Origin: Clostridiaceae bacterium | GTDB lineage: Bacteria; Bacillota; Clostridia; Saccharofermentanales; DTU023 | Assembly (NCBI GenBank): GCA_012518845.1 | Contig: JAAYRJ010000088.1 | Span: 1 to 37,221 of the forward strand | Direction of reading: 5' to 3' | Length of the DNA stretch: 37,221 bases | In this document: piece by piece, positions 10,386 to 31,669 of the stretch | How positions within the stretch are numbered: position 1 is the first letter of the stretch | Layout of the letters: every line of letters begins with the position of its first letter | Translations under genes and position numbers: made by a program | Notes under the pieces: generated by a model | What the model was told of the DNA's origin: nothing | What the model saw: only the letters and a program-made list of their open reading frames with translations | Database searches by the model: none

Positions 10386-11612
10386 TTATGACTTCTTTTT
10401 TAATTTTTCTAATAAAGTGTTTATCTTAGCTGTAGGTGTAATTAAGCTTGACATTGCTGCATTATGGTTCATAGCATCAATTAATAAAGCAACAAATTTT
10501 GTCATATCTGCTTCGATAAACCAGGGAGTATTTAGGATTTCATCTGGCAAATAACATAGATTTGTAGCTATTACTTTGTCGATTAAACCTTTTTCATAGT
10601 AATTGTTAAATTCTTCAATACCATCTGTAAAAAGTGCAAAAGTAACAGCACAAAAAATTCTTCTGGCACCTTTAGACTTCAAAACTTTTGCTAAATCTAG
10701 CATTGATTCGCCGGAAGAGAGCATATCATCAATAATGAGAACGTCATAGCCTTCGACCGAATCACCTAAAAATTCATGAGCAATAATTGGATTTCTACCA
10801 TCAATGACCTTAGCATAATCTCTTCTTTTGTAAAAAGTACCAAGTGGAACATTTAACATTGAAGCATAATACATTGATCTACTAATAGCACCTTCATCTG
10901 GACTTATAATCATCAACGAGTCGGGCTGGATTTTAATATCTTTAACCTTTGAGGTTAAAGCTTTTAAGATTTGATAATTTGATTGTATTGATTCAAAGCT
11001 ATGGGTTGGTACAGCATTTGCAACACGATCATCATGGGCATCAAAGGTAATAAAGTTACTAATTCCTAAGTCAAAGATATCTTCTAGCATATAGGCACAG
11101 TCTAAAGATTCTCTACCAGTTCGACGATGCTGCCTACTTTCGTACAAAAAGGGCATGATTACATTGATGCGTCTTGCTTTACCAGAAGCTGCTAAGATAA
11201 TTCTCTTAAGATCTTGATAATGGTCGTCTGGGCTGTAATGATTAATTAAACCACGCATTTTGTATGTACAACTATAATTAGTTACATCACAAATTATGTA
11301 AAGATCATGACCACGCACTGTTTGTTCTAATACGCCTTTACCTTCACCAGTTGAAAATCTAACCGCTTCTGCTTTTATTCGATAATCATCACGTAAAAAA
11401 CCAGGGCTTGCCACTGATTCTGCATCAGTCATTTTTAAATATTCTTTTCTTCTTTTGACAAGTTGTTTGTTTACTTTTACACCAAACTCTTTTGCTCCTA
11501 CAAGGGAAATAATTCCAACAGGTGCATCTGCAGGCATTGGATTATCACCATATTGATCATAACGATAATAATTTTTATCATCACGCTTAATTGCTTTTTT
11601 ACTTTTTGCCAT
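10386..11612 (-). CDS. Ribose-phosphate pyrophosphokinase-like protein, second copy
   Basis: A 408-residue member of the PRPP synthetase family (ribose 5-phosphate + ATP to PRPP + AMP, feeding purine, pyrimidine, His and Trp synthesis). Family landmarks are GHDLYIICD near residue 103, MPFLYESRQHRR (the flexible ATP loop, canonical PYxxYxRxDR), FDAHDDR (the catalytic-loop histidine, canonical DLHxxQ), and the PRPP-binding loop IIDDMLSSGES. This loop departs from the usual DDxxDTxGT: Asp-Thr is replaced by Ser-Ser. It is about 90 residues longer than standard Prs (310-320). It overlaps the upstream paralogue by 14 bases, with AAGGGAG as RBS. It may be a true synthetase, a regulatory paralogue, or a partner in a hetero-oligomer. 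Confidence 0.82.
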   Translation of the reverse strand: MAKSKKAIKRDDKNYYRYDQYGDNPMPADAPVGIISLVGAKEFGVKVNKQLVKRRKEYLKMTDAESVASPGFLRDDYRIKAEAVRFSTGEGKGVLEQTVRGHDLYIICDVTNYSCTYKMRGLINHYSPDDHYQDLKRIILAASGKARRINVIMPFLYESRQHRRTGRESLDCAYMLEDIFDLGISNFITFDAHDDRVANAVPTHSFESIQSNYQILKALTSKVKDIKIQPDSLMIISPDEGAISRSMYYASMLNVPLGTFYKRRDYAKVIDGRNPIIAHEFLGDSVEGYDVLIIDDMLSSGESMLDLAKVLKSKGARRIFCAVTFALFTDGIEEFNNYYEKGLIDKVIATNLCYLPDEILNTPWFIEADMTKFVALLIDAMNHNAAMSSLITPTAKINTLLEKLKKKS

Positions 11613-12858
11613 TTGTAACTCCCTTGAAATTATTTAATAATTCTTGAATTCTTTTTGTGGGATTCATCAAGCTAGATAGCGATGCATCATGATTATAACC
11701 ATCTATTAGTAATGCAATATATTTTGCAAAGTTAACATCTGAGAACCATTCTCGTTCTAATAATTCGGGCGGTCTATAGGCTAAATTTGTTGCGAAAATT
11801 TTGTTGATAATTCCTTTCTCATAGGCCTCATCAAACTTTTCTATACCTTTAGAAAACTGAGCAAATGTAACCGCTACAAAAACTCTTCTTGCATTTTGCT
11901 CTTTTAATTGGGTTGCACATTCTAAAGCAGTCTTGCCTGTATCGATCATATCGTCAACTATTAATACATCTTTGCCTGCGATTTGATCTCCCAAAAACTT
12001 TTTTTGGGCATGTGATTTTACAGATCTTTCGGTATATTTTCCTTCGCTAATCAATCTTGGATCATAATGACGATAAAATAATCCAAGAGGTACTTGCATT
12101 AAAGAAGCATAATAAATACAGCGCTTGATTGAAGCCTCATCAGCACTTGCTACCATAAAATTATCTTTGTCAATTTTTAAGTCTGGATATTCAGTAATAA
12201 GTGCTTCTATTAATTGTAAAGAAGTTTTAACAGATTCGAAATTCTTAGTAGGTACTGCATTTGCCATACGATCATCATGTGCATCAAAAGTTAAAAAATT
12301 GTCTATACCTAAATCAAACAATCTATTGAGCATTACTGCACAATCTAAAGAGCCTCGATTAACTCTACGATAGACACGTCCTTCATAGAGATAGGGCATA
12401 ATAACATTAATGCGCTTTGCAACACCATGAACAGCAGAAATAACTCTAGATAAATCTTCAAAATGTTCATCAGGACTAAGAGAGACATCTTGTTCAAACC
12501 GTTGATAACGTTGCCCATAATTTAATACATCAGTAATAATAAAGAGATCATGCCCACGTACAGATTCTGTAATAATAGCTTTTCCTTCACCAGAATTAAA
12601 TCTATCTAAGATAGCTGGGATACGGTAGTCTGCGCGAAAATATCCAGGAATCGAACCTTGATTGGGATATTCGTCTACAGTAATAGCACGACGATTGCGC
12701 AAATGAAAATTTATTGAATCTGAGAGAGCTGGATCAAGTTGATCACTAATAATTGCCACAGGACCTATTGGATGTAAGATTTCCTCATCATAATTTCTTA
12801 ATACCAACAAGTCAGTGGTTCGAGTATATGAGCCTGGTTCGTAATCTGATTTTGACAT
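11599..12858 (-). CDS. prs: Ribose-phosphate pyrophosphokinase, long form
   Basis: A 419-residue PRPP synthetase family protein and the first gene of the minus-strand pair. It keeps closer-to-canonical motifs: MPYLYEGRVYRR for the ATP loop, FDAHDDRMANAVP for the catalytic histidine loop, and VDDMIDTGKTA for the PRPP loop. It shares colinear blocks with its neighbour along its whole length, including GHDL, SPDEHFEDL, FESV, GLFY, AVTFA.F..GIE.F and a C-terminal ALLIDG.NHD..LSSL..P. This indicates tandem duplication. GAGGT lies 4 bases before the ATG. The extra ~100 residues are spread at the N-terminus and in insertions. It is the better candidate for the house Prs. Confidence 0.87.
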   Translation of the reverse strand: MSKSDYEPGSYTRTTDLLVLRNYDEEILHPIGPVAIISDQLDPALSDSINFHLRNRRAITVDEYPNQGSIPGYFRADYRIPAILDRFNSGEGKAIITESVRGHDLFIITDVLNYGQRYQRFEQDVSLSPDEHFEDLSRVISAVHGVAKRINVIMPYLYEGRVYRRVNRGSLDCAVMLNRLFDLGIDNFLTFDAHDDRMANAVPTKNFESVKTSLQLIEALITEYPDLKIDKDNFMVASADEASIKRCIYYASLMQVPLGLFYRHYDPRLISEGKYTERSVKSHAQKKFLGDQIAGKDVLIVDDMIDTGKTALECATQLKEQNARRVFVAVTFAQFSKGIEKFDEAYEKGIINKIFATNLAYRPPELLEREWFSDVNFAKYIALLIDGYNHDASLSSLMNPTKRIQELLNNFKGVTNGKK

Positions 12859-19989: not shown

Positions 19990-21030
19990 GTGTTTAAGAA
20001 CAAAAGAAATCGATATTTATTAATTTTTATAGTAGCAATCATTGTTATAATTTTGATGATTTTTTCGCTTATTCCTACTAGCATTGTTAATAAAGGTAGT
20101 TCTCCAATTTCGTTTATAGTAAGACCAATTGAAAATTTAATTAACACTATAAGTGTCAACTCAAAGAATTATTTTTCTGCAATAGAGTTAAATAAACAAT
20201 TAACAGAGGAAAATAAAAATTTAACAGAGCAAAATGTAGATCTGCGGTTACAGGTAAAAGAAAATGAAGCTGCTGCTATCGAATATGAAAAATTAAAAAA
20301 TGTTTATAATATTTCTAATAAATATGATTATTTAAATTTTATTGGAGCAAGAATTTTACAAAAACCTCTAGGAAAAGATTTAAATCTCTATCGAATTGAC
20401 CGAGGTCTTGATGCAGGAATCAATTTATCCGAAAAATCTGGTTTTCCAGTAATTGATGCTGATGCTAATGTTTTTGGTCGAATATATAATAGTGATGCTT
20501 TGACTGCCAAAGTTTTACCTGTGACAAGCGAGGGATTTTCGGTTAGTTGCTTCATCAGTGAAAATCGCGGACAGGCTTTTATATTTAAAGGAGATGTTGA
20601 GTTAAAACAGCAAGGACTTTGTAAGATAGAAGATGTTCCTGCTGAAAGTATCGTCAACATAGGAGATGAAATCTATACTAGTGGATTAGGTGGTGTTTTT
20701 CCATATGGCCTATTGCTAGGTGAAGTAGTCGAAATATCTCCACTTAATTCTCAAGGAACACAAACTATATTAGTTGAGCCTGCTATAGATTTTAAGACAA
20801 TTGAAAATGTTTTCGTCTTAACGAACGATTTATTGCCCGATAATCTAGAAGATCCAGATGATGAATCGAGATTTAGAGAAGATAGTTCAGCAGCAAATGA
20901 AAATGAAAAAATAGACGAAACAGTGCAAGAAACAGCTACAGAAATTCTTTCAGAAGAATCTGAAGAAAAGGAACAAGATGTAGATACGGATACTGATGCT
21001 TCTGAAGTTAATGAGTCTTACGGAAATTAA
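19990..21030 (+). CDS. mreC: Rod shape-determining protein MreC
   Basis: A 346-residue bitopic membrane protein of the elongasome that links cytoplasmic shape factors to periplasmic or extracytoplasmic PBP2. A transmembrane helix at residues 10-30 follows a basic start. A coiled coil spans about 60-102 (NKQLTEENKNLTEQN), and the two beta-domains include LNLYRIDRGLDAGI and the GLGGVFPYGLLLGEV segment typical of the family. The C-terminal tail from about residue 280 is very acidic (Glu/Asp/Ser-rich), longer than usual. The start codon is GTG with GAGG 11 bases upstream. It is 5 bases before mreD. Confidence 0.94.
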   Translation: MFKNKRNRYLLIFIVAIIVIILMIFSLIPTSIVNKGSSPISFIVRPIENLINTISVNSKNYFSAIELNKQLTEENKNLTEQNVDLRLQVKENEAAAIEYEKLKNVYNISNKYDYLNFIGARILQKPLGKDLNLYRIDRGLDAGINLSEKSGFPVIDADANVFGRIYNSDALTAKVLPVTSEGFSVSCFISENRGQAFIFKGDVELKQQGLCKIEDVPAESIVNIGDEIYTSGLGGVFPYGLLLGEVVEISPLNSQGTQTILVEPAIDFKTIENVFVLTNDLLPDNLEDPDDESRFREDSSAANENEKIDETVQETATEILSEESEEKEQDVDTDTDASEVNESYGN

Positions 21031-21035
21031 TTAAT

Positions 21036-21611
21036 ATGAATTCATCCAAAATAAAATTAGTTTTTAAAATCCTTTTATATGTTATTTTGGCTTTTGTTTG
21101 TAATCAAATTGTCCAGCAAATCTTCCCAGGATTAGATATTTATCCTGATTTCTTTTTTGTTTTGATTTGGACTTTTTCTTATTTTCACAAAATTGAGTGG
21201 AGTCTACTTTTAGCTGTCATTTCTGGTTTGTTTAGAGATATTCTATTTGGTCAAGTTTTTGGATTAAGCATTATACTAGGGATACTTGGAGCTTATTTGG
21301 CAAGTCATCTTTTACAATTCGTTTGGCAACAACGTATCAGATTTCTACCTGTTCAGGTTTTATTGGTAAGCTTAATCATTAAATTTCTTGAGACCATCTC
21401 ATTAAACATAGTTACGATGTTTAAATTTAGCGAGACATTTTTATTAAATCAAGTATTTATATCGTACAGATACCAAATTCCTAGCTATATTGGATTAAAC
21501 TTTATTGCTACAGTGATTTGTTATATTCTAATAAATCATGTATTTCCTTTTGAAAAAATGGAAAAAGACGTTTACGCTGAAAATATGTTAAATCTAAATG
21601 GAGAATTTTAA
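21036..21611 (+). CDS. mreD: Rod shape-determining protein MreD
   Basis: A 191-residue membrane protein with five or six transmembrane helices. The family signature around IYPDFFFVLIWTFSYF and SGLFRDILFGQVFGLSII (charged Arg-Asp within the membrane region) is clear. It works with MreC, PBP2 and RodA in lateral cell wall synthesis. Its stop codon overlaps the start of the PBP2 gene by one base (TAATG), indicating translational coupling. Confidence 0.93.
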   Translation: MNSSKIKLVFKILLYVILAFVCNQIVQQIFPGLDIYPDFFFVLIWTFSYFHKIEWSLLLAVISGLFRDILFGQVFGLSIILGILGAYLASHLLQFVWQQRIRFLPVQVLLVSLIIKFLETISLNIVTMFKFSETFLLNQVFISYRYQIPSYIGLNFIATVICYILINHVFPFEKMEKDVYAENMLNLNGEF

Positions 21612-23830
21612 TGTCAAAATTTGAAATGGTGCCTTTTAAAAAAGTAAACTCAAAAAAATTTTATAGACAAAATGACTCTTTATTCCCACGTTTTTTTATT
21701 GTCGGTTTATTTCTAGTAGTGATGTTGATCATTATTTTATTTCGAACCTCAATATTACAGTTGAGCTCTGCAGAAATTAACCAGATTCCTGAAACTGTAG
21801 GACAAAAGTCACAAATGACTGTAGAGGCTCCACGTGGAGACATTGTAGATTTAAATGGCGAGACATTAGCTTATTCTGTAACTGAACCCATGCTTTATTT
21901 GAACAATGCTGACTTAAGCAATAAAGCTCTAAATCTAATGTTGTTAAATTTATCAAATTTAATGTTAGAAAATGGTGTTGATTTGCCGGATAATCTTACC
22001 CAGTATTTTGATTATTCTACAGATTCAAAATCTAAAGATGACAAAACAAATGCAACTTTTGTCTTTAAAAAAGATTTAAAAGAAATAGAACGTTGGCAAC
22101 AAAACTCTGATTTGTTTGGTTTAAAATCAGAAGATGATGCGAGAAATAAAGATGAACAGGTCAAACTTGACTCAAAAGAATTTTATGATTATCTGTTGTA
22201 TTCAAAATTCTCAATTGAAGACATTGAGGCAGGAGGAAATTTTTTATATACAACAGAGGAAGCATTTCAGATTATGCAAATGCGGTATCTTATCTTAGAA
22301 CATAATTGGCAATTTTTAACAGGTGAAGCGATTTTGGTAGGTGGTCCAGTCAATCAAAAAATGATTAACGTTATTGGCGAACAAAATCAAAAATACGCAG
22401 GTGCCTTAATTGCCGAAACTTCAAAGAGAAAATATACAAATAACAGTGCATTATTTTCACATGTTTTGGGTTATACAGGCAAAATATCTGAAGCAGAGTA
22501 TCAAAACTTAAAATCCTTTTCTTATGGACTTAATGATACGGTAGGCAAAAGCGGTGTAGAGTTATCCGCCGAAAGGTATTTACATGGAATTCCAGGTACA
22601 ATTCCTTATGGTTACTGGCAACGAAATGCAGAAGGGGAACCAGAATATATTCAAGGCGAGGGCGGGGTTGAGCCAAAAGCTGGCAACAAAGTTCGTTTAA
22701 CTTTAGATAAAAATGTCCAGGAAGCTACTTTACAAGCTTTGATGGAAAATCTTGAAGAACTTCGTGAGAGCGGTGAAGAGCCACAATCTACAAGTGCAAT
22801 GACAATGAATGCAAAAACAGGTGCAGTAATTTCTATGGCGTCTATCCCCAATTTTCATCCGCAAGATTTTTCATTAGCTCAATATGATGAAAAGGCAGCT
22901 GAGAGAGTGGAAAATTATTTTTCCGATAATGAAAATAAGCCTATGCTTAATCGAGCCATCTCAGAAATTTACGCCCCAGCTTCTACTTTTAAACCATTTA
23001 CAGCTTGTGCAGCTTTAGAAAATAATATAATTTCTTCGGGAAATCAAACCTATTCTTGTAATGGAACTGAGGAAATAGGTTATCGTGTCTGGCAATGTTA
23101 TGGGAGACCAATAGGTGGACATGGCCCTTTAAATTTACATGATGGAATGGTAACTTCTTGTAATTTATATTTCTATAAAATGGGAATAGACACTGGTATT
23201 GATAATTTAACTAAGACATTTAAAAAATTAGGGATGGGTGAGTATACTAATATTGATCTGCCAGGAGAAGTAAAAGGTATAAGACCCAGTCCTGAATTGA
23301 AGCAACAAACTCAAGCACTGCCCGAAGATCAGCAATGGTTTCCTGCCGATACAGCCCAGTCTTCAATTGGACAGTCTTTCAATTCTTACACATTGGTTCA
23401 ATTGTGTCGTGGAATTAACGGGATAGCGACGGGTAAATTGGTACAGCCACATGTTATAAAGGAAGTAACAGATGAAAATGGAGAAATTGTAAAACCAGAA
23501 GTAATAGAAGTTGAGGACTTAGGGTTCTCAGAAGAAAATATTGCATTAATTCGTGACTCTATGGAAGGCTTAGCGTATAATCCTGGGACAACAACCTTTG
23601 AAGCATTTAACGGTTATACAGTTAGAGTGGCTATGAAGACTGGTACAGCTGAAGTGCAAAATAGCTCCAGTCAAAACATTCAAATTAATTCACTTTTCGT
23701 TTGTTATGCACCAGCTGATGATCCAGAAATTGTTTTTGTTAGCGTAGTAGAAAATACAGGAAAATCTGGTTTATCCGGTGTAGCAAAGAAAGTTTTTGAT
23801 GCATATTTTGGTTTTAATCAGGATCCATAA
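21611..23830 (+). CDS. mrdA: Class B penicillin-binding protein 2 (elongasome transpeptidase)
   Basis: A 739-residue D,D-transpeptidase that cross-links peptidoglycan. A single transmembrane anchor lies at about 28-46, a pedestal/dimerisation domain spans about 65-350, and a transpeptidase domain follows from about 390. Catalytic motifs are Ser458-Thr-Phe-Lys461, Ser516-Cys-Asn518 and Lys676-Thr-Gly. A PBP2-type insertion of charged residues lies at about 135-190. Position after mreCD supports the elongation role. No rodA is nearby, although a partner SEDS glycosyltransferase is expected for this class. Confidence 0.93.
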   Translation: MSKFEMVPFKKVNSKKFYRQNDSLFPRFFIVGLFLVVMLIIILFRTSILQLSSAEINQIPETVGQKSQMTVEAPRGDIVDLNGETLAYSVTEPMLYLNNADLSNKALNLMLLNLSNLMLENGVDLPDNLTQYFDYSTDSKSKDDKTNATFVFKKDLKEIERWQQNSDLFGLKSEDDARNKDEQVKLDSKEFYDYLLYSKFSIEDIEAGGNFLYTTEEAFQIMQMRYLILEHNWQFLTGEAILVGGPVNQKMINVIGEQNQKYAGALIAETSKRKYTNNSALFSHVLGYTGKISEAEYQNLKSFSYGLNDTVGKSGVELSAERYLHGIPGTIPYGYWQRNAEGEPEYIQGEGGVEPKAGNKVRLTLDKNVQEATLQALMENLEELRESGEEPQSTSAMTMNAKTGAVISMASIPNFHPQDFSLAQYDEKAAERVENYFSDNENKPMLNRAISEIYAPASTFKPFTACAALENNIISSGNQTYSCNGTEEIGYRVWQCYGRPIGGHGPLNLHDGMVTSCNLYFYKMGIDTGIDNLTKTFKKLGMGEYTNIDLPGEVKGIRPSPELKQQTQALPEDQQWFPADTAQSSIGQSFNSYTLVQLCRGINGIATGKLVQPHVIKEVTDENGEIVKPEVIEVEDLGFSEENIALIRDSMEGLAYNPGTTTFEAFNGYTVRVAMKTGTAEVQNSSSQNIQINSLFVCYAPADDPEIVFVSVVENTGKSGLSGVAKKVFDAYFGFNQDP

Positions 23831-23870: not shown

Positions 23871-23899
23871 TTGAAAAAATTAGCGAAAGTGTATAAAAT
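23871..23899 (+). promoter_or_regulatory. Promoter upstream of the MGS-like gene
   Basis: TTGAAA (23871-23876), a 17-base spacer, and TAAAAT (23894-23899) lie 30 bases upstream of the GTG start. An A-rich stretch (about 23832-23880) precedes and overlaps it and could act as an UP element. Confidence 0.55.
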
Positions 23900-23929
23900 A
23901 ATGATTGAGTTCTAGTTTAGGAGGCATTT

Positions 23930-24319
23930 GTGAATATTGTAGTAATCGCTGATTCAAGAAAATATGATTTATTGGTCAATTTCTGTATAGCTTATAATCA
24001 AATTTTATCAAAACATCACTTAATTTCACTTTTTAATATTTCTCGTGCTATTGAAGCTAATACTGATTTAGTAGTTGAAACGTTAGCGACAGATATTTCG
24101 GCAGGTATTGAACAGTTAGCTTCAAAGGCTACTTATAATGAAATAGACGCAGTTATTTATTTAAGGGATACATTACTAGGCACATATGATCAACCTAATT
24201 CACTATTAAAATCGTGTGACGCTAATAGTATTCCTTATGCAACAAATGTAGCTTCTGCAGAATTGTTAGTACTTGCTATTGACCGTGGCGATTTAGATTG
24301 GCGCGAATTAATTAAGTAA
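23930..24319 (+). CDS. Methylglyoxal synthase-like protein lacking the catalytic residues
   Basis: A 129-residue single-domain protein with the MGS-like fold. The hydrophobic pattern and blocks such as IPYATNVASAELL (compare IPVATNVATAD in E. coli MgsA), NEIDAVIYLRDTL and IVVIA fit the family, as does the position downstream of mre/PBP2, where Clostridium carries mgsA. The hand alignment shows the enzyme residues gone. The AHD motif (His19, Asp20) reads Ala-Asp8-Ser9. The phosphate-binding TGTTG reads LFNIS. The GGDQQ segment with the Asp71 base has no Asp. The HDPD segment reads YDQP. The only histidines are 29-30. It is therefore unlikely to make methylglyoxal. GTG start with GGAGG 7 bases upstream. 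It precedes an MBL-fold gene by 8 bases. Confidence 0.75.
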   Translation: MNIVVIADSRKYDLLVNFCIAYNQILSKHHLISLFNISRAIEANTDLVVETLATDISAGIEQLASKATYNEIDAVIYLRDTLLGTYDQPNSLLKSCDANSIPYATNVASAELLVLAIDRGDLDWRELIK

Positions 24320-24327
24320 TATTTAAT

Positions 24328-24981
24328 ATGTTAAAAAAATTAAAATACAAAATTATTCCAGAAAATTGGCAACATGCCAATTCGTACTTAATTCAGGCTG
24401 AAAAAAATTATCTAATTGATCCTAGCATTGATTTTGATTCTGGAATTGCTCAGGATTTAGATAGCATCTATGCTACTCATTTTCATTTTGATCATATTAG
24501 TCAAGTAGACATTTGGAGAAAAAATACAGAGGCAAAGTTTATCATGCCAGAAAATGACCAAGAATTGTTGAATGATGAAATTGCAAATTGTTCTACAATG
24601 TTTGGTCAGCCTCGTAGTTTTTCAAGTCCAGATTCTTTCTATAATGATGAACAAATTATCGAAGTAGAAAAGGATTTATTTTTCAAGTTTTATTTACTGC
24701 CCGGTCATTCTCCAGGTTGCTCAGCTATTTTGATTTCGTATCTTCATGCAAATGAAATGAAACCCTTTGTGTTAATTTCTGGTGATGTATTATTTGCAAA
24801 TAGTATTGGTAGAACTGATCTAAAAGGTGGAGATCCGCTCCAAATGCAAGAATCTTTAAAGCGTCTAATTACAATTATGAAGGACCTTCCTATGGATTTG
24901 CCTGTTTTGCCTGGACATGGACCTATTTTTACAATTAAAGATGCATTAACTAACAATCCATATGTTAGATATTTTCTTTAA
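24328..24981 (+). CDS. MBL-fold metallo-hydrolase (glyoxalase II-like)
   Basis: A 217-residue metallo-beta-lactamase-fold hydrolase. The metal site is complete: His51-x-His53-x-Asp55-His56 (THFHFDH), His127 (GHSPGC), Asp153 (SGDVLF) and His197 (GHGP). The size and motif set match the small cytosolic Zn/Fe hydrolases annotated as hydroxyacylglutathione hydrolase-like; the substrate is unknown. No proper Shine-Dalgarno sequence precedes its ATG, so translation probably depends on the upstream MGS-like gene. The pairing with a methylglyoxal-related fold is suggestive of glyoxal metabolism, but the partner appears inactive, so I do not infer a pathway. Confidence 0.85.
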   Translation: MLKKLKYKIIPENWQHANSYLIQAEKNYLIDPSIDFDSGIAQDLDSIYATHFHFDHISQVDIWRKNTEAKFIMPENDQELLNDEIANCSTMFGQPRSFSSPDSFYNDEQIIEVEKDLFFKFYLLPGHSPGCSAILISYLHANEMKPFVLISGDVLFANSIGRTDLKGGDPLQMQESLKRLITIMKDLPMDLPVLPGHGPIFTIKDALTNNPYVRYFL

Positions 24982-28849: not shown

Positions 28850-29119
28850 ATGTTTTCTCTAGAAGCTATGTTAACAGTCCCGTTAAGTTTAACAGTTTTT
28901 ATTCAAGGGATTGTCTATTTGAATCCAATCGTAAATGAAATCGAAACACAAACAATTATTGTTGCAGAAGAAAGGATCATTAAAGAAAAAAATCAACATT
29001 TATACTCTATTAATTTAGAATCAGCAATTACAAATTTAGAGGTAAATCCACAAAAATCACAAGAAATAATCTCATTAGCACATGACTTAGCAAATTTATT
29101 TTTACAAGAGGATAATTGA
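28850..29119 (+). CDS. TadE-like small pseudopilin-type protein
   Basis: An 89-residue protein whose first 24 residues form a hydrophobic helix of the TadE/pilin type, with the S-L-E-A-M-L-x-x-P pattern (compare xxVEAxLxxP in TadE-like proteins of Clostridia). The glutamate is residue 5 counted from the initiator Met, and there is no basic leader or Gly cleavage site before it, so the protein begins where a processed pilin would. Residues 30-89 are a soluble helical tail. GAAAGGA lies about 8 bases before the ATG. It is followed after 22 bases by the DUF5702-like gene. A role in a cell-surface assembly is inferred from this pattern and the neighbours only. Confidence 0.6.
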   Translation: MFSLEAMLTVPLSLTVFIQGIVYLNPIVNEIETQTIIVAEERIIKEKNQHLYSINLESAITNLEVNPQKSQEIISLAHDLANLFLQEDN

Positions 29120-29141
29120 ATTGAGTCAAAAGGGGTCTAAA

Positions 29142-30626
29142 ATGTTAATAGAAAAATCTAATAAAACATTAAAATTATTCAGGAAAATTATCAATCAAGA
29201 TGGTGAATTAAGTTTACTATTTCTTATTATTCTTCCTGTGACCATGTTAATTTTATTTTCTTTTTTTGCTAATGCACAGGTTGATCGGGATGAATTAGAT
29301 TTTATAAGAGCATGTCAAAATGAATTAGATTTAACTTTAGCAGACTATGATCGTCAACTCTGGAATGAATTTGGTCTTTGGGGGACAGATATTAATAAAT
29401 TAAATCAAAATAATGAATTCATTTCGAAAAGTTATATGGGATCATCCAATTATATGCCGTATGTTTATGACACCAATATAGAGATGAAACATGATTTGTC
29501 TGATAATCAACAATTTAAAAAACAAATTTTAAGACATATGAGTTATAGGGCGCCGGCTCTTTTAATTGATGAAATAATTGACCGTTATTCAAATTATTCA
29601 AACTTAAACAATAATTTGAGTCTAGTTTCTACAAATAACCTAGGCTCTGAACTAGTTGATCCAGAAAAAATTCAAAAAAATCCAGAGAATTATCTTGGAG
29701 ATATTTCTGAATTAGATGTTGAAATTCCAAAACAAGAATCTTCTGATGATGAAACAGAATCGCAAGAATTGACTGAAGAAGAACAAAATGAGTTATCTAG
29801 TAAAGCAATGGAATTGTTAGGTGACAAAATTTCAGAAGCTAAAAGCTTACTTATTCCAGTTTATGAGTCGAGTGGCACTGATATACCTGCAAATCCATTA
29901 GATCCAAATTCCATCAGTACTATTACAAGTCATCTAGATTCCATTTTAGTAAATAATGAAACACCTGTATTAGATAGTGTATTAATTTCAGAATATTTAT
30001 TTAATTATTACACAATGCATTGTTCTCAACTTGAGCTTAATACAGGTAAGAAAACACTGGTAACGCCAGATGGTAGGAAACATCAAACATTAATTGATGC
30101 AGGACGAAAACATGAGATTGAACAAATTGTTTTTAATGAGGACGATCCAGAAAAAGCATATAAAACAGCGAAAAACTATATCTCAGGTATTTGCTTTTCT
30201 TATCATCTTATTGATTGTATGACTGATCAAGTAAAGCAAAATATTTATTTCGCTGAAGCAATAGTTTTAAGTGGAGCTATTGCCCTGGCAAGCTTAGGTG
30301 GTGTAGTCATAGACCCAGAACCATTATCTTATCTTTTTATGCTGATAGATGTTTGTATAAAAACGCATCGTGATGTTAAACAAGTAATATCTGGTAAGAT
30401 GATTAATCTAAAGTTTTCGGATATAGATATTAAACTAAATTATAAAGACTTTATGCGGATGTTTTTGCTTACAAAATCGGAAGATGCTTTGTTAGAAGGC
30501 ATGACAAGAATCCGTGAAAAAACAATTCCAAAACAATTTGCAGTAAGCTTTGTCTTAAGTGGAAATTTTGAGAATAAGGAAATATCAATGCACAGAAGTT
30601 TTTCTGATTATCGTGATTCAGAATAG
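29142..30626 (+). CDS. DUF5702-like membrane-anchored surface protein
   Basis: A 494-residue protein. After a basic start, a hydrophobic helix (GELSLLFLIILPVTMLIL, about residues 24-42) leads into the segment DELDFIRACQNELDLTLADYDRQLWNEFGLWG. This resembles the DUF5702 family, found with Tad pilus genes in Clostridia, whose members share an A-Y-D-x-x-L-x-x-x-Y/F-G-L pattern. The middle has an acidic low-complexity stretch (about residues 200-225), and a second hydrophobic region lies near residues 378-405 (AEAIVLSGAIALASLGGVV). ATG 29142 has AAGGGG 6 bases upstream; an in-frame TTG at 29121 is the alternative start. It is 38 bases before the third cluster gene. The molecular function is unknown. 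Confidence 0.65.
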   Translation: MLIEKSNKTLKLFRKIINQDGELSLLFLIILPVTMLILFSFFANAQVDRDELDFIRACQNELDLTLADYDRQLWNEFGLWGTDINKLNQNNEFISKSYMGSSNYMPYVYDTNIEMKHDLSDNQQFKKQILRHMSYRAPALLIDEIIDRYSNYSNLNNNLSLVSTNNLGSELVDPEKIQKNPENYLGDISELDVEIPKQESSDDETESQELTEEEQNELSSKAMELLGDKISEAKSLLIPVYESSGTDIPANPLDPNSISTITSHLDSILVNNETPVLDSVLISEYLFNYYTMHCSQLELNTGKKTLVTPDGRKHQTLIDAGRKHEIEQIVFNEDDPEKAYKTAKNYISGICFSYHLIDCMTDQVKQNIYFAEAIVLSGAIALASLGGVVIDPEPLSYLFMLIDVCIKTHRDVKQVISGKMINLKFSDIDIKLNYKDFMRMFLLTKSEDALLEGMTRIREKTIPKQFAVSFVLSGNFENKEISMHRSFSDYRDSE

Positions 30627-30664
30627 ATCAATTGAATTCGAGCTTAAATAACGGAGACTATCTC

Positions 30665-31669
30665 ATGCAAAAGATAACAAGAAAAATAAAATCACAAAAT
30701 GGAAATTTAGTGTTAGAAACAGCCCTTATTATTCCAATAATTCTCCTGATTTCATACTTCATGATTTCAGCAACTATGACTGTCAAGCATGAGATAATCA
30801 TGCGTTATGCTTTAGATCAAACTTCAAAAGAATTGTCTGTGATAATTCCTTTGGCAGAAGTGGCAGGCGAACAAATTGGTCAGCCGATCATAGAGGATGT
30901 CTGGGAACAAATCGATGAATTAGGAGAAGATTTCAAGCAATCAATGGGAGATTTTGCGGCATCGATCTTTTTACAAGATTATCTGCAAAAGACAGTAGAT
31001 AAATGGATTCAAGCAGGAGCAAGTCAATTAAATATAAGAATACCGCCCGATCAAAGACAAATAATCTTAGAAAAAACAACAGATCATGCTCTTGAACTAA
31101 AAATGAATTACCATATTTACACTCCTTGGACAAAAACTAAAAAAACAGCTATTACATATTTACCTTTGTGGTCTAAATTTGATCAAGATTATGATGGAAA
31201 AACTGAGGAAAAAGATTCTGATCAAGAAGCAGATAATATCTGGTCAGAACATAATTTTGTGAGAGGATCATACTTTCGAGATAAATACAATGCTAATTTA
31301 CCTTTTAATTATCCTATAATTTCAAGTTTTAACAATGGCAAGGCAACTTCTATCAGAAGTATAGACTTGACTTCGCCAACATATCAAGACGAAACCAAGC
31401 TTGAGAAACAAATACAATATGAAATCAATCAATTGGCAAACTTTCAAGGTTCTAATCGAGATACAAAAATTAATCCCAGCCAAATCGGCGCAGATGATAT
31501 AATTTCCCGCGAATTAGTTTTGGTAATACCCAAAAATTCTAAATATGAGATTAATGATCCTATTTTTTTATCAATGAAAAGTGAGGCAAATTATCAAGGT
31601 GTAAGTTTGCGGATAGATCAACATGGCAATAGCTATCGCTATCAAGAAAAACCAAGTAATGAAGAATAA
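30665..31669 (+). CDS. TadE-like protein, large
   Basis: A 334-residue protein with a pilin-like N-terminus: a short basic leader (MQKITRKIKSQNG), then NLVLETALIIPIILLISYF with Glu followed by the hydrophobic helix. The region after the helix is helical and soluble. Near residue 198 the segment W-x-E-x-x-F-V-R-G, followed by PFNYPIISSFNNGKA and SIDLTSPTY, matches a pattern I associate with TadE-like proteins of Clostridia. ATG 30665 is preferred to a TTG at 30632 because CGGAGA lies 7 bases upstream. It ends the cluster; a 221-base gap precedes secA. Likely a minor pseudopilin or surface-exposed membrane protein. Confidence 0.62.
   Translation: MQKITRKIKSQNGNLVLETALIIPIILLISYFMISATMTVKHEIIMRYALDQTSKELSVIIPLAEVAGEQIGQPIIEDVWEQIDELGEDFKQSMGDFAASIFLQDYLQKTVDKWIQAGASQLNIRIPPDQRQIILEKTTDHALELKMNYHIYTPWTKTKKTAITYLPLWSKFDQDYDGKTEEKDSDQEADNIWSEHNFVRGSYFRDKYNANLPFNYPIISSFNNGKATSIRSIDLTSPTYQDETKLEKQIQYEINQLANFQGSNRDTKINPSQIGADDIISRELVLVIPKNSKYEINDPIFLSMKSEANYQGVSLRIDQHGNSYRYQEKPSNEE

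What the first reader, a model, noticed from the sequence alone, without database searches (positions are those of the whole stretch)
23930..24319. Methylglyoxal synthase fold without its active site
The gene lies where Clostridium genomes carry mgsA (after mre/PBP2) and keeps the fold pattern, but the catalytic His19/Asp20, phosphate-binding TGTTG, Asp71 and His98 of E. coli MgsA are not present. The only two histidines (29-30) are outside these positions. It may be a ligand-binding or regulatory descendant, and its cotranscription with an intact MBL-fold hydrolase invites a functional link.
Basis: partly seen in the sequence, partly recalled or inferred. Interest (0 to 1): 0.6.

Follow-up and report, generated by a model that had tools for sequence, protein, structure and literature searches.

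The report
Order-wide catalytically dead methylglyoxal synthase
A whole order of gut and anaerobic bacteria keeps, next to its cell-shape genes, a highly conserved protein with the fold of the enzyme methylglyoxal synthase but none of that enzyme's catalytic residues, which points to a second, non-enzymatic job for a protein family usually annotated as an enzyme.

Summary
ORF 23930-24319 (129 aa) is a genuine MgsA descendant: TIGR00160 E 8e-18 but 64.7 bits against a cut-off of 146.9; AlphaFold2 pLDDT 92; the best structural matches are all MgsA (Z up to 20.8). Yet His19, Asp20, Lys23, TGTTG, Ser65-Gly66, Asp71 and Asp101 are replaced, and the loop carrying His98 is deleted.

It is not a decaying gene. 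The same dead form occurs in 87 of 87 good genomes of the order (Saccharofermentanales). It forms one clade (SH-aLRT 100), has dN/dS of about 0.02-0.09, and is the most conserved gene of its neighbourhood. The window's genome has no true mgsA; only 3 of 118 genomes in the order do, all as an additional E. coli-type copy. The gene sits in radC-mreC-mreD-PBP2-[MGS*-MBL]-pheST, and the MGS*-MBL pair has a conserved promoter of its own.

Other Clostridia have independently lost Asp71 in the shape-cluster copy. In 11 of 11 inspected genomes carrying a second, intact E. coli-type MgsA, the cluster copy lacked Asp71.

Best reading: an MgsA-derived pseudoenzyme that acts by binding, probably with the adjacent YcbL-type hydrolase. 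Loss of activity is near certain by inference; the partner and ligand are unproven. New variant of a known kind.

The parts
23930..24319 (+). MGS*: 129-aa MgsA-fold protein without the MgsA catalytic residues
23871..23899 (+). Promoter-like TTGAAA-17-TAAAAT; the element recurs at -56 to -63 in relatives (21 of 28 dereplicated leaders, shuffle mean 0.1)
23919..23924 (+). Ribosome-binding site AGGAGG of MGS*
   Evidence: sequence
24328..24981 (+). MBL-fold hydrolase (YcbL/GloB-like), 8 nt after MGS*; metal ligands H51, H53, D55, H56, H127, D153, H197 conserved in the order
21611..23830 (+). PBP2/MrdA elongation transpeptidase, directly upstream; shape-gene context
21036..21611 (+). mreD
19990..21030 (+). 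mreC-like gene (named by position before mreD/PBP2; recurring cluster in synteny, no family search run on it)

Best explanation
MGS* is a pseudoenzyme derived from methylglyoxal synthase. It keeps the MgsA fold and the residues that all clostridial MgsA proteins share outside the active site, but it lost the catalytic base, the general acid/base residues and the phosphate cradle once, before the divergence of the order, and has been held under strong purifying selection since. It therefore works by binding and not by making methylglyoxal. It is transcribed from its own promoter together with a catalytically intact YcbL-type MBL hydrolase, and I infer that its most likely partner is that hydrolase, as a regulatory or targeting subunit (about 0.35 for this partner; the elongation machinery next). 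Shown: homology, fold prediction, loss of residues, order-wide fixation, constraint, synteny, conserved promoter-like element. Inferred: absence of MG synthase activity, use of the promoter, oligomerisation, binding role, identity of the partner.
For: Residue losses in 69 of 69 unique order sequences. Fixed in 87 of 87 good genomes of the order, with a true MgsA in only 3 of 118. One clade, SH-aLRT 100. dN/dS 0.02-0.09 (many dS values are near or above saturation, the least saturated pairs give 0.03-0.07). Median identity to the window across 39 order loci: 57% for MGS*, against 47% pheS, 41% radC, 39% PBP2, 32% MBL. Fold pLDDT 92, MgsA the best match at Z about 20. The phosphate cradle is chemically reversed: K23->N/T/Y, G66->D/E in 67 of 69, His98 loop deleted in 67 of 69. 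MBL adjacent in 35 of 39 loci with 5-40 nt gaps in most; metal ligands at least 95% conserved. Own promoter-like element. The three order genomes with a true MgsA keep MGS* as well.
Against: No biochemical data. The MBL gene is not next to the cluster copy in any sampled Clostridia outside the order, and some order loci have MGS* without an adjacent MBL (L055, L059, L061, L063), so the MBL may be only a neighbour. Newly conserved polar residues in the old pocket (D8 97-99%, N36, T37, D/E55) would also fit a new catalytic site. The structure is a monomer model; oligomerisation was not tested.
Confidence: 0.6

Rival explanations
1. Shape-cluster MgsA of Clostridia has an old second role tied to cell-wall elongation (mreBCD-PBP2-min-rodA cluster), and MGS* kept only that role; the MBL gene is a local neighbour.
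For: The cluster copy sits with mreBCD, PBP2, minCD and rodA across Lachnospiraceae and with mreCD-PBP2 in the order. The catalytic base was lost independently several times while the gene stayed (7 changes of D71 on the tree). In 11 of 11 inspected genomes with a second intact E. coli-type MgsA the cluster copy lacked D71.
Against: The conserved promoter-like element separates MGS*-MBL from PBP2; the MGS*-MBL pair persists in two loci where PBP2 is not upstream (L054, L087); gene adjacency is not function.
Confidence: 0.25
2. MGS* is a new enzyme: the pocket was rebuilt around D8, K11, R10, N36, D/E55, Q62, R79 and D80 for another, probably non-phosphorylated, substrate feeding the MBL hydrolase.
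For: D8 97% and K11, D80, C96, D97 100% conserved in 37 dereplicated order sequences; pairing with an intact hydrolase.
Against: Other former pocket positions are variable (S9, L34, I60, Q88). K11, R79, D80, C96 and D97 are equally conserved in true clostridial MgsA, so only D8, N36 and D/E55 are new.
Confidence: 0.15
3. MGS* still makes methylglyoxal with displaced residues.
For: Fold retained; Asp91 equivalent kept.
Against: Base, acid, phosphate ligands and the His98 loop are absent throughout the order sequences; the roles of D71, H19, H98, TGTTG, Lys and Ser in catalysis and phosphate binding are set out in PMC7843640.
Confidence: 0.03
4. A functionless relic carried along in the operon.
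For: None beyond loss of the active site.
Against: dN/dS 0.02-0.09, 87 of 87 genomes, most conserved gene of the neighbourhood.
Confidence: 0.01

Closest known systems
Methylglyoxal synthase MgsA (B. subtilis 6f2c, Thermus 1wo8, E. coli 1b93; TIGR00160)
   Same: Fold over nearly the whole length (Z 19-21), 35% identity to 6f2c in the structural alignment, position in the shape cluster, residues outside the site such as K11, C96-D97, P102, A104, N106, E111, R125
   Different: No catalytic or phosphate-binding residues, two-residue loop deletion at His98, bit score 64.7 against a cut-off of 146.9
MGS-like domain of carbamoyl phosphate synthetase (allosteric) and of PurH/ATIC
   Same: Same superfamily fold (Z 12.9 to 1a9x, about 9-10 to PurH); a precedent for an MGS-fold domain with a non-MgsA role
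   Different: Those are domains of large proteins; MGS* is a free protein with 7-15% identity to them
B. subtilis MgsA-Crh regulatory complex
   Same: Precedent for MgsA being bound by a regulatory protein (PMC12291648, citing Landmann 2011)
   Different: There MgsA is the active enzyme being inhibited; no Crh search was done here
YcbL/GloB-type MBL hydrolases (2xf4, 7l0b), for the neighbouring gene
   Same: Metal-ligand set and sequence similarity (E 3e-17, 4e-18)
   Different: The partner's substrate is unknown; far below the GloB equivalog cut-off (34 of 200.8 bits)

Membership tests
Methylglyoxal synthase (MgsA, TIGR00160 equivalog) | Score over the curated cut-off (146.9 bits) | tested here: not met
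   64.7 bits; order members at most 84 bits
Methylglyoxal synthase (MgsA, TIGR00160 equivalog) | MgsA fold | tested here: met
   pLDDT 92; Z 20.8 to 1wo8, 19.9 to 6f2c, 18.8 to 1b93
Methylglyoxal synthase (MgsA, TIGR00160 equivalog) | Catalytic base Asp71 | tested here: not met
   Ile60; hydrophobic or aromatic throughout the order
Methylglyoxal synthase (MgsA, TIGR00160 equivalog) | His19, Asp20, His98, Asp101 | tested here: not met
   D8, S9, loop deleted, Q88; role of H19/H98 from PMC7843640, D20/D101 from own knowledge
Methylglyoxal synthase (MgsA, TIGR00160 equivalog) | Phosphate cradle Lys23, TGTTG, Ser65-Gly66 | tested here: not met
   Y12, LFNIS, T54-D55
Methylglyoxal synthase (MgsA, TIGR00160 equivalog) | Converts DHAP to methylglyoxal | not testable with these tools
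   needs an enzyme assay
Methylglyoxal synthase (MgsA, TIGR00160 equivalog) | Homohexamer | not testable with these tools
   only a monomer model could be made
Pfam MGS-like domain PF02142 | Profile match | tested here: not met
   no Pfam family up to E 10
MGS-like regulatory domain of CarB/PurH | Part of a CarB or PurH protein | tested here: not met
   stand-alone 129-aa ORF; the genome has separate PF02142 matches in long ORFs elsewhere

The most novel reading that the evidence does not exclude
The mgsA gene of the clostridial shape cluster encodes a protein with a conserved non-catalytic function that is older than, and separable from, methylglyoxal synthesis. Several lineages discarded the catalysis (Asp71 lost independently), some then acquired an E. 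coli-type MgsA elsewhere in the genome, and Saccharofermentanales kept only the non-catalytic role, now in one transcription unit with an MBL hydrolase.
Probability: 0.4. Interest if true: 0.75.

Novelty: new variant of a known kind. Interest (0 to 1): 0.6.

Why it matters
Annotation transfers 'methylglyoxal synthase' to proteins lacking the catalytic base: several D71-less Clostridia copies pass NCBI's equivalog cut-off (for example G142:C16, 156.8 bits). Predictions of methylglyoxal or 1,2-propanediol production by gut Clostridia built on such annotation may be wrong. An order-wide, strongly constrained pseudoenzyme in a cell-shape gene cluster also makes testable the idea that MgsA couples glycolytic state to wall growth by binding and not by its product.

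Tried and rejected
Active-site residues displaced in sequence: rejected by alignment over 69 unique order sequences. Chance ORF or pseudogene: rejected by constraint and distribution. True mgsA hidden elsewhere in the genome: PF02142 and TIGR00160 searches find none, though the assembly is 88% complete. Glyoxalase pathway link: no glyoxalase I over the curated cut-off in 59 relatives, only weak matches, so a classical MG-detoxification role for the MBL partner is not supported. Cotranscription with PBP2 alone: weakened by the conserved promoter-like element in front of MGS*, although read-through cannot be excluded. The generic sigma-70 scan of the window was no better than shuffles; only the comparison across relatives made the promoter credible. 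Literature searches found no report of a dead MgsA; a C. difficile Tn-seq/CRISPRi paper does not mention mgsA.

Full report
OBSERVATION. The ORF at 23930-24319 (+) encodes 129 aa from GTG with AGGAGG 5 nt upstream. Pfam finds nothing, but NCBIfam TIGR00160 methylglyoxal synthase matches residues 2-117 with E 8.3e-18 at 64.7 bits, far below the curated cut-off of 146.9. The best solved relative is B. subtilis MgsA 6f2c, E 2.6e-17. An AlphaFold2 model from 43 sequences has mean pLDDT 92 and pTM 0.87. Every top structural match is an MgsA: 1wo8 Z 20.8, 6f2c Z 19.9, E. coli 1b93 Z 18.8; the MGS-like domain of CarB follows at Z 12.9 and PurH at about 9-10.

ACTIVE SITE. By alignment to E. coli and B. 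subtilis MgsA (the two reference sequences were typed from my own knowledge and agree with the PDB alignment), E. coli positions map to this protein as H19->D8, D20->S9, K23->Y12, T45-G49 TGTTG->L34-S38 LFNIS, S65->T54, G66->D55, D71->I60, P97-H98 deleted between T85 and Y86, D101->Q88. The roles of D71 (base), H19, H98, the TGTTG motif, Lys and Ser are described in PMC7843640. Over 69 unique sequences of the order, position 19 is D/E in all, position 66 is D/E in 67, position 71 is F/I/L/V/M/Y, and the His98 position is gapped in 67. Retained at high frequency in both the order and true clostridial MgsA are, among others, K11, F18, A21, Y22, D73, D80 (E. coli D91), C96, D97, P102, A104, N106, E111, G120 and R125. 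So the framework is kept while the site is gone, and where a phosphate cradle was there is now an acidic residue.

DISTRIBUTION AND CONSTRAINT. The window lies on contig C10 of a 1.77-Mb assembly, 88% complete. Relatives' records are titled Mageeibacillus and Saccharofermentans, so I take the order to be Saccharofermentanales. In the order, 115 of 118 genomes, and 87 of 87 of at least 90% completeness, carry this protein; only 3 of 118 have anything over the MgsA cut-off, and these three carry it as an additional E. coli-type copy with the full catalytic set. The window's genome has no other MgsA. The order's proteins form one clade with SH-aLRT 100 in a 109-row tree (quick search, few columns). 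Pairwise dN/dS among congeners is 0.03-0.09, and 0.02 in a further close pair; many dS values are near saturation, but the least saturated pairs give 0.03-0.07. Against the window, median identity across 39 order loci is 57% for MGS*, 47% pheS, 41% radC, 39% PBP2, 32% MBL and 31% mreC (not every gene is found in every locus).

NEIGHBOURHOOD. In the order the arrangement is radC-mreC-mreD-PBP2-MGS*-MBL, often followed by pheS-pheT. PBP2 and mreD were checked by profile; mreC is named by position. The MBL gene follows MGS* directly in 35 of 39 loci, mostly with gaps of 5-40 nt. It resembles YcbL/GloB-type hydrolases (7ev5 1.9e-21, 7l0b 4e-18, 2xf4 3e-17), and its metal ligands are at least 95% conserved in 37 members, so it is probably an active hydrolase. 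Between PBP2 and MGS* lie usually 80-180 nt. There a TTGNNN-17-TANAAT element occurs in 21 of 28 dereplicated leaders against 0.1 in shuffles (mononucleotide), at -56 to -63 in 20 of the 21; in the window it is TTGAAA at 23871 and TAAAAT ending at 23899. MGS*-MBL is therefore probably its own transcription unit within the cluster. In Lachnospiraceae the MgsA copy lies in mreB-mreC-mreD-PBP2-minC-(minD)-rodA-MgsA, which supports orthology by position.

A WIDER PATTERN. In the class, 126 of 243 genomes have an MgsA over the cut-off. Of 60 class sequences inspected outside the order, 31 keep Asp71 and 19 keep all of H19, D20, K23, D71, H98 and D101; this sample was picked from the hit list and is not random. 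On the tree D71 changes 7 times by parsimony; starred branches force fewer (group counts of 2-3). In 11 genomes I inspected both copies: the second, E. coli-type copy has the complete catalytic set in 11 of 11 and the cluster copy lacks Asp71 in 11 of 11. These 11 fall in only three families, so this is about three events plus those within the order, not 11.

MECHANISM. Best reading: a pseudoenzyme that binds something. Shown here: homology, predicted fold, residue loss, fixation, constraint, synteny and a conserved promoter-like element. Inferred: no MG synthesis (about 0.95), a binding role (about 0.7), and the MBL hydrolase as partner (about 0.35). The main rival is a role in wall elongation inherited from the shape-cluster MgsA; a rebuilt enzyme is less likely but not excluded. 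A precedent for regulation through MgsA is its binding by Crh in B. subtilis (PMC12291648); a precedent for an MGS-fold domain with a purely regulatory role is that of carbamoyl phosphate synthetase (own knowledge; structural similarity).

MEMBERSHIP AND NOVELTY. It is not an MgsA by function-defining features, which were tested and not met, but it is an MgsA descendant by fold, sequence and position. The literature searched has no report of it (open-access subset only). I rate it a new variant of a known kind.

Noticed in passing
L094, L096, L100, L123, L178, L179, L184, L197 and others: Shape-cluster MgsA of Lachnospiraceae and other Clostridia lacks the catalytic base Asp71 (GGxQQ with x = T, S, E, K, M, A, C, I), yet mostly keeps the other site residues; some of these score above NCBI's MgsA equivalog cut-off.
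   Followed up: partly
L201-L212 compared with L170, L178, L179, L181, L187, L213-L218: Genomes with a second, E. coli-type MgsA with all catalytic residues have an Asp71-less shape-cluster copy (11 of 11 where both were inspected; three families).
   Followed up: partly
L092, L093, L095, L097, L107, L108, L110, L112, L120-L122, L131: A further Clostridia group (Oscillospiraceae/Ruminococcus-titled records) with degenerate MgsA: D71 replaced, H98/D101 region rewritten, C-terminal extension, mostly not next to PBP2.
   Followed up: partly
window 10386-12858 (-): Two tandem, diverged genes of 408 and 419 aa that look like ribose-phosphate pyrophosphokinases by eye; no family search was run.
   Followed up: no
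window 28850-31669 (+): A run of three envelope-type ORFs (89, 501 and 345 aa; TadE-like by eye), of which the last two are conserved with the cluster through much of the order as clusters c6 and c7; not identified.
   Followed up: no
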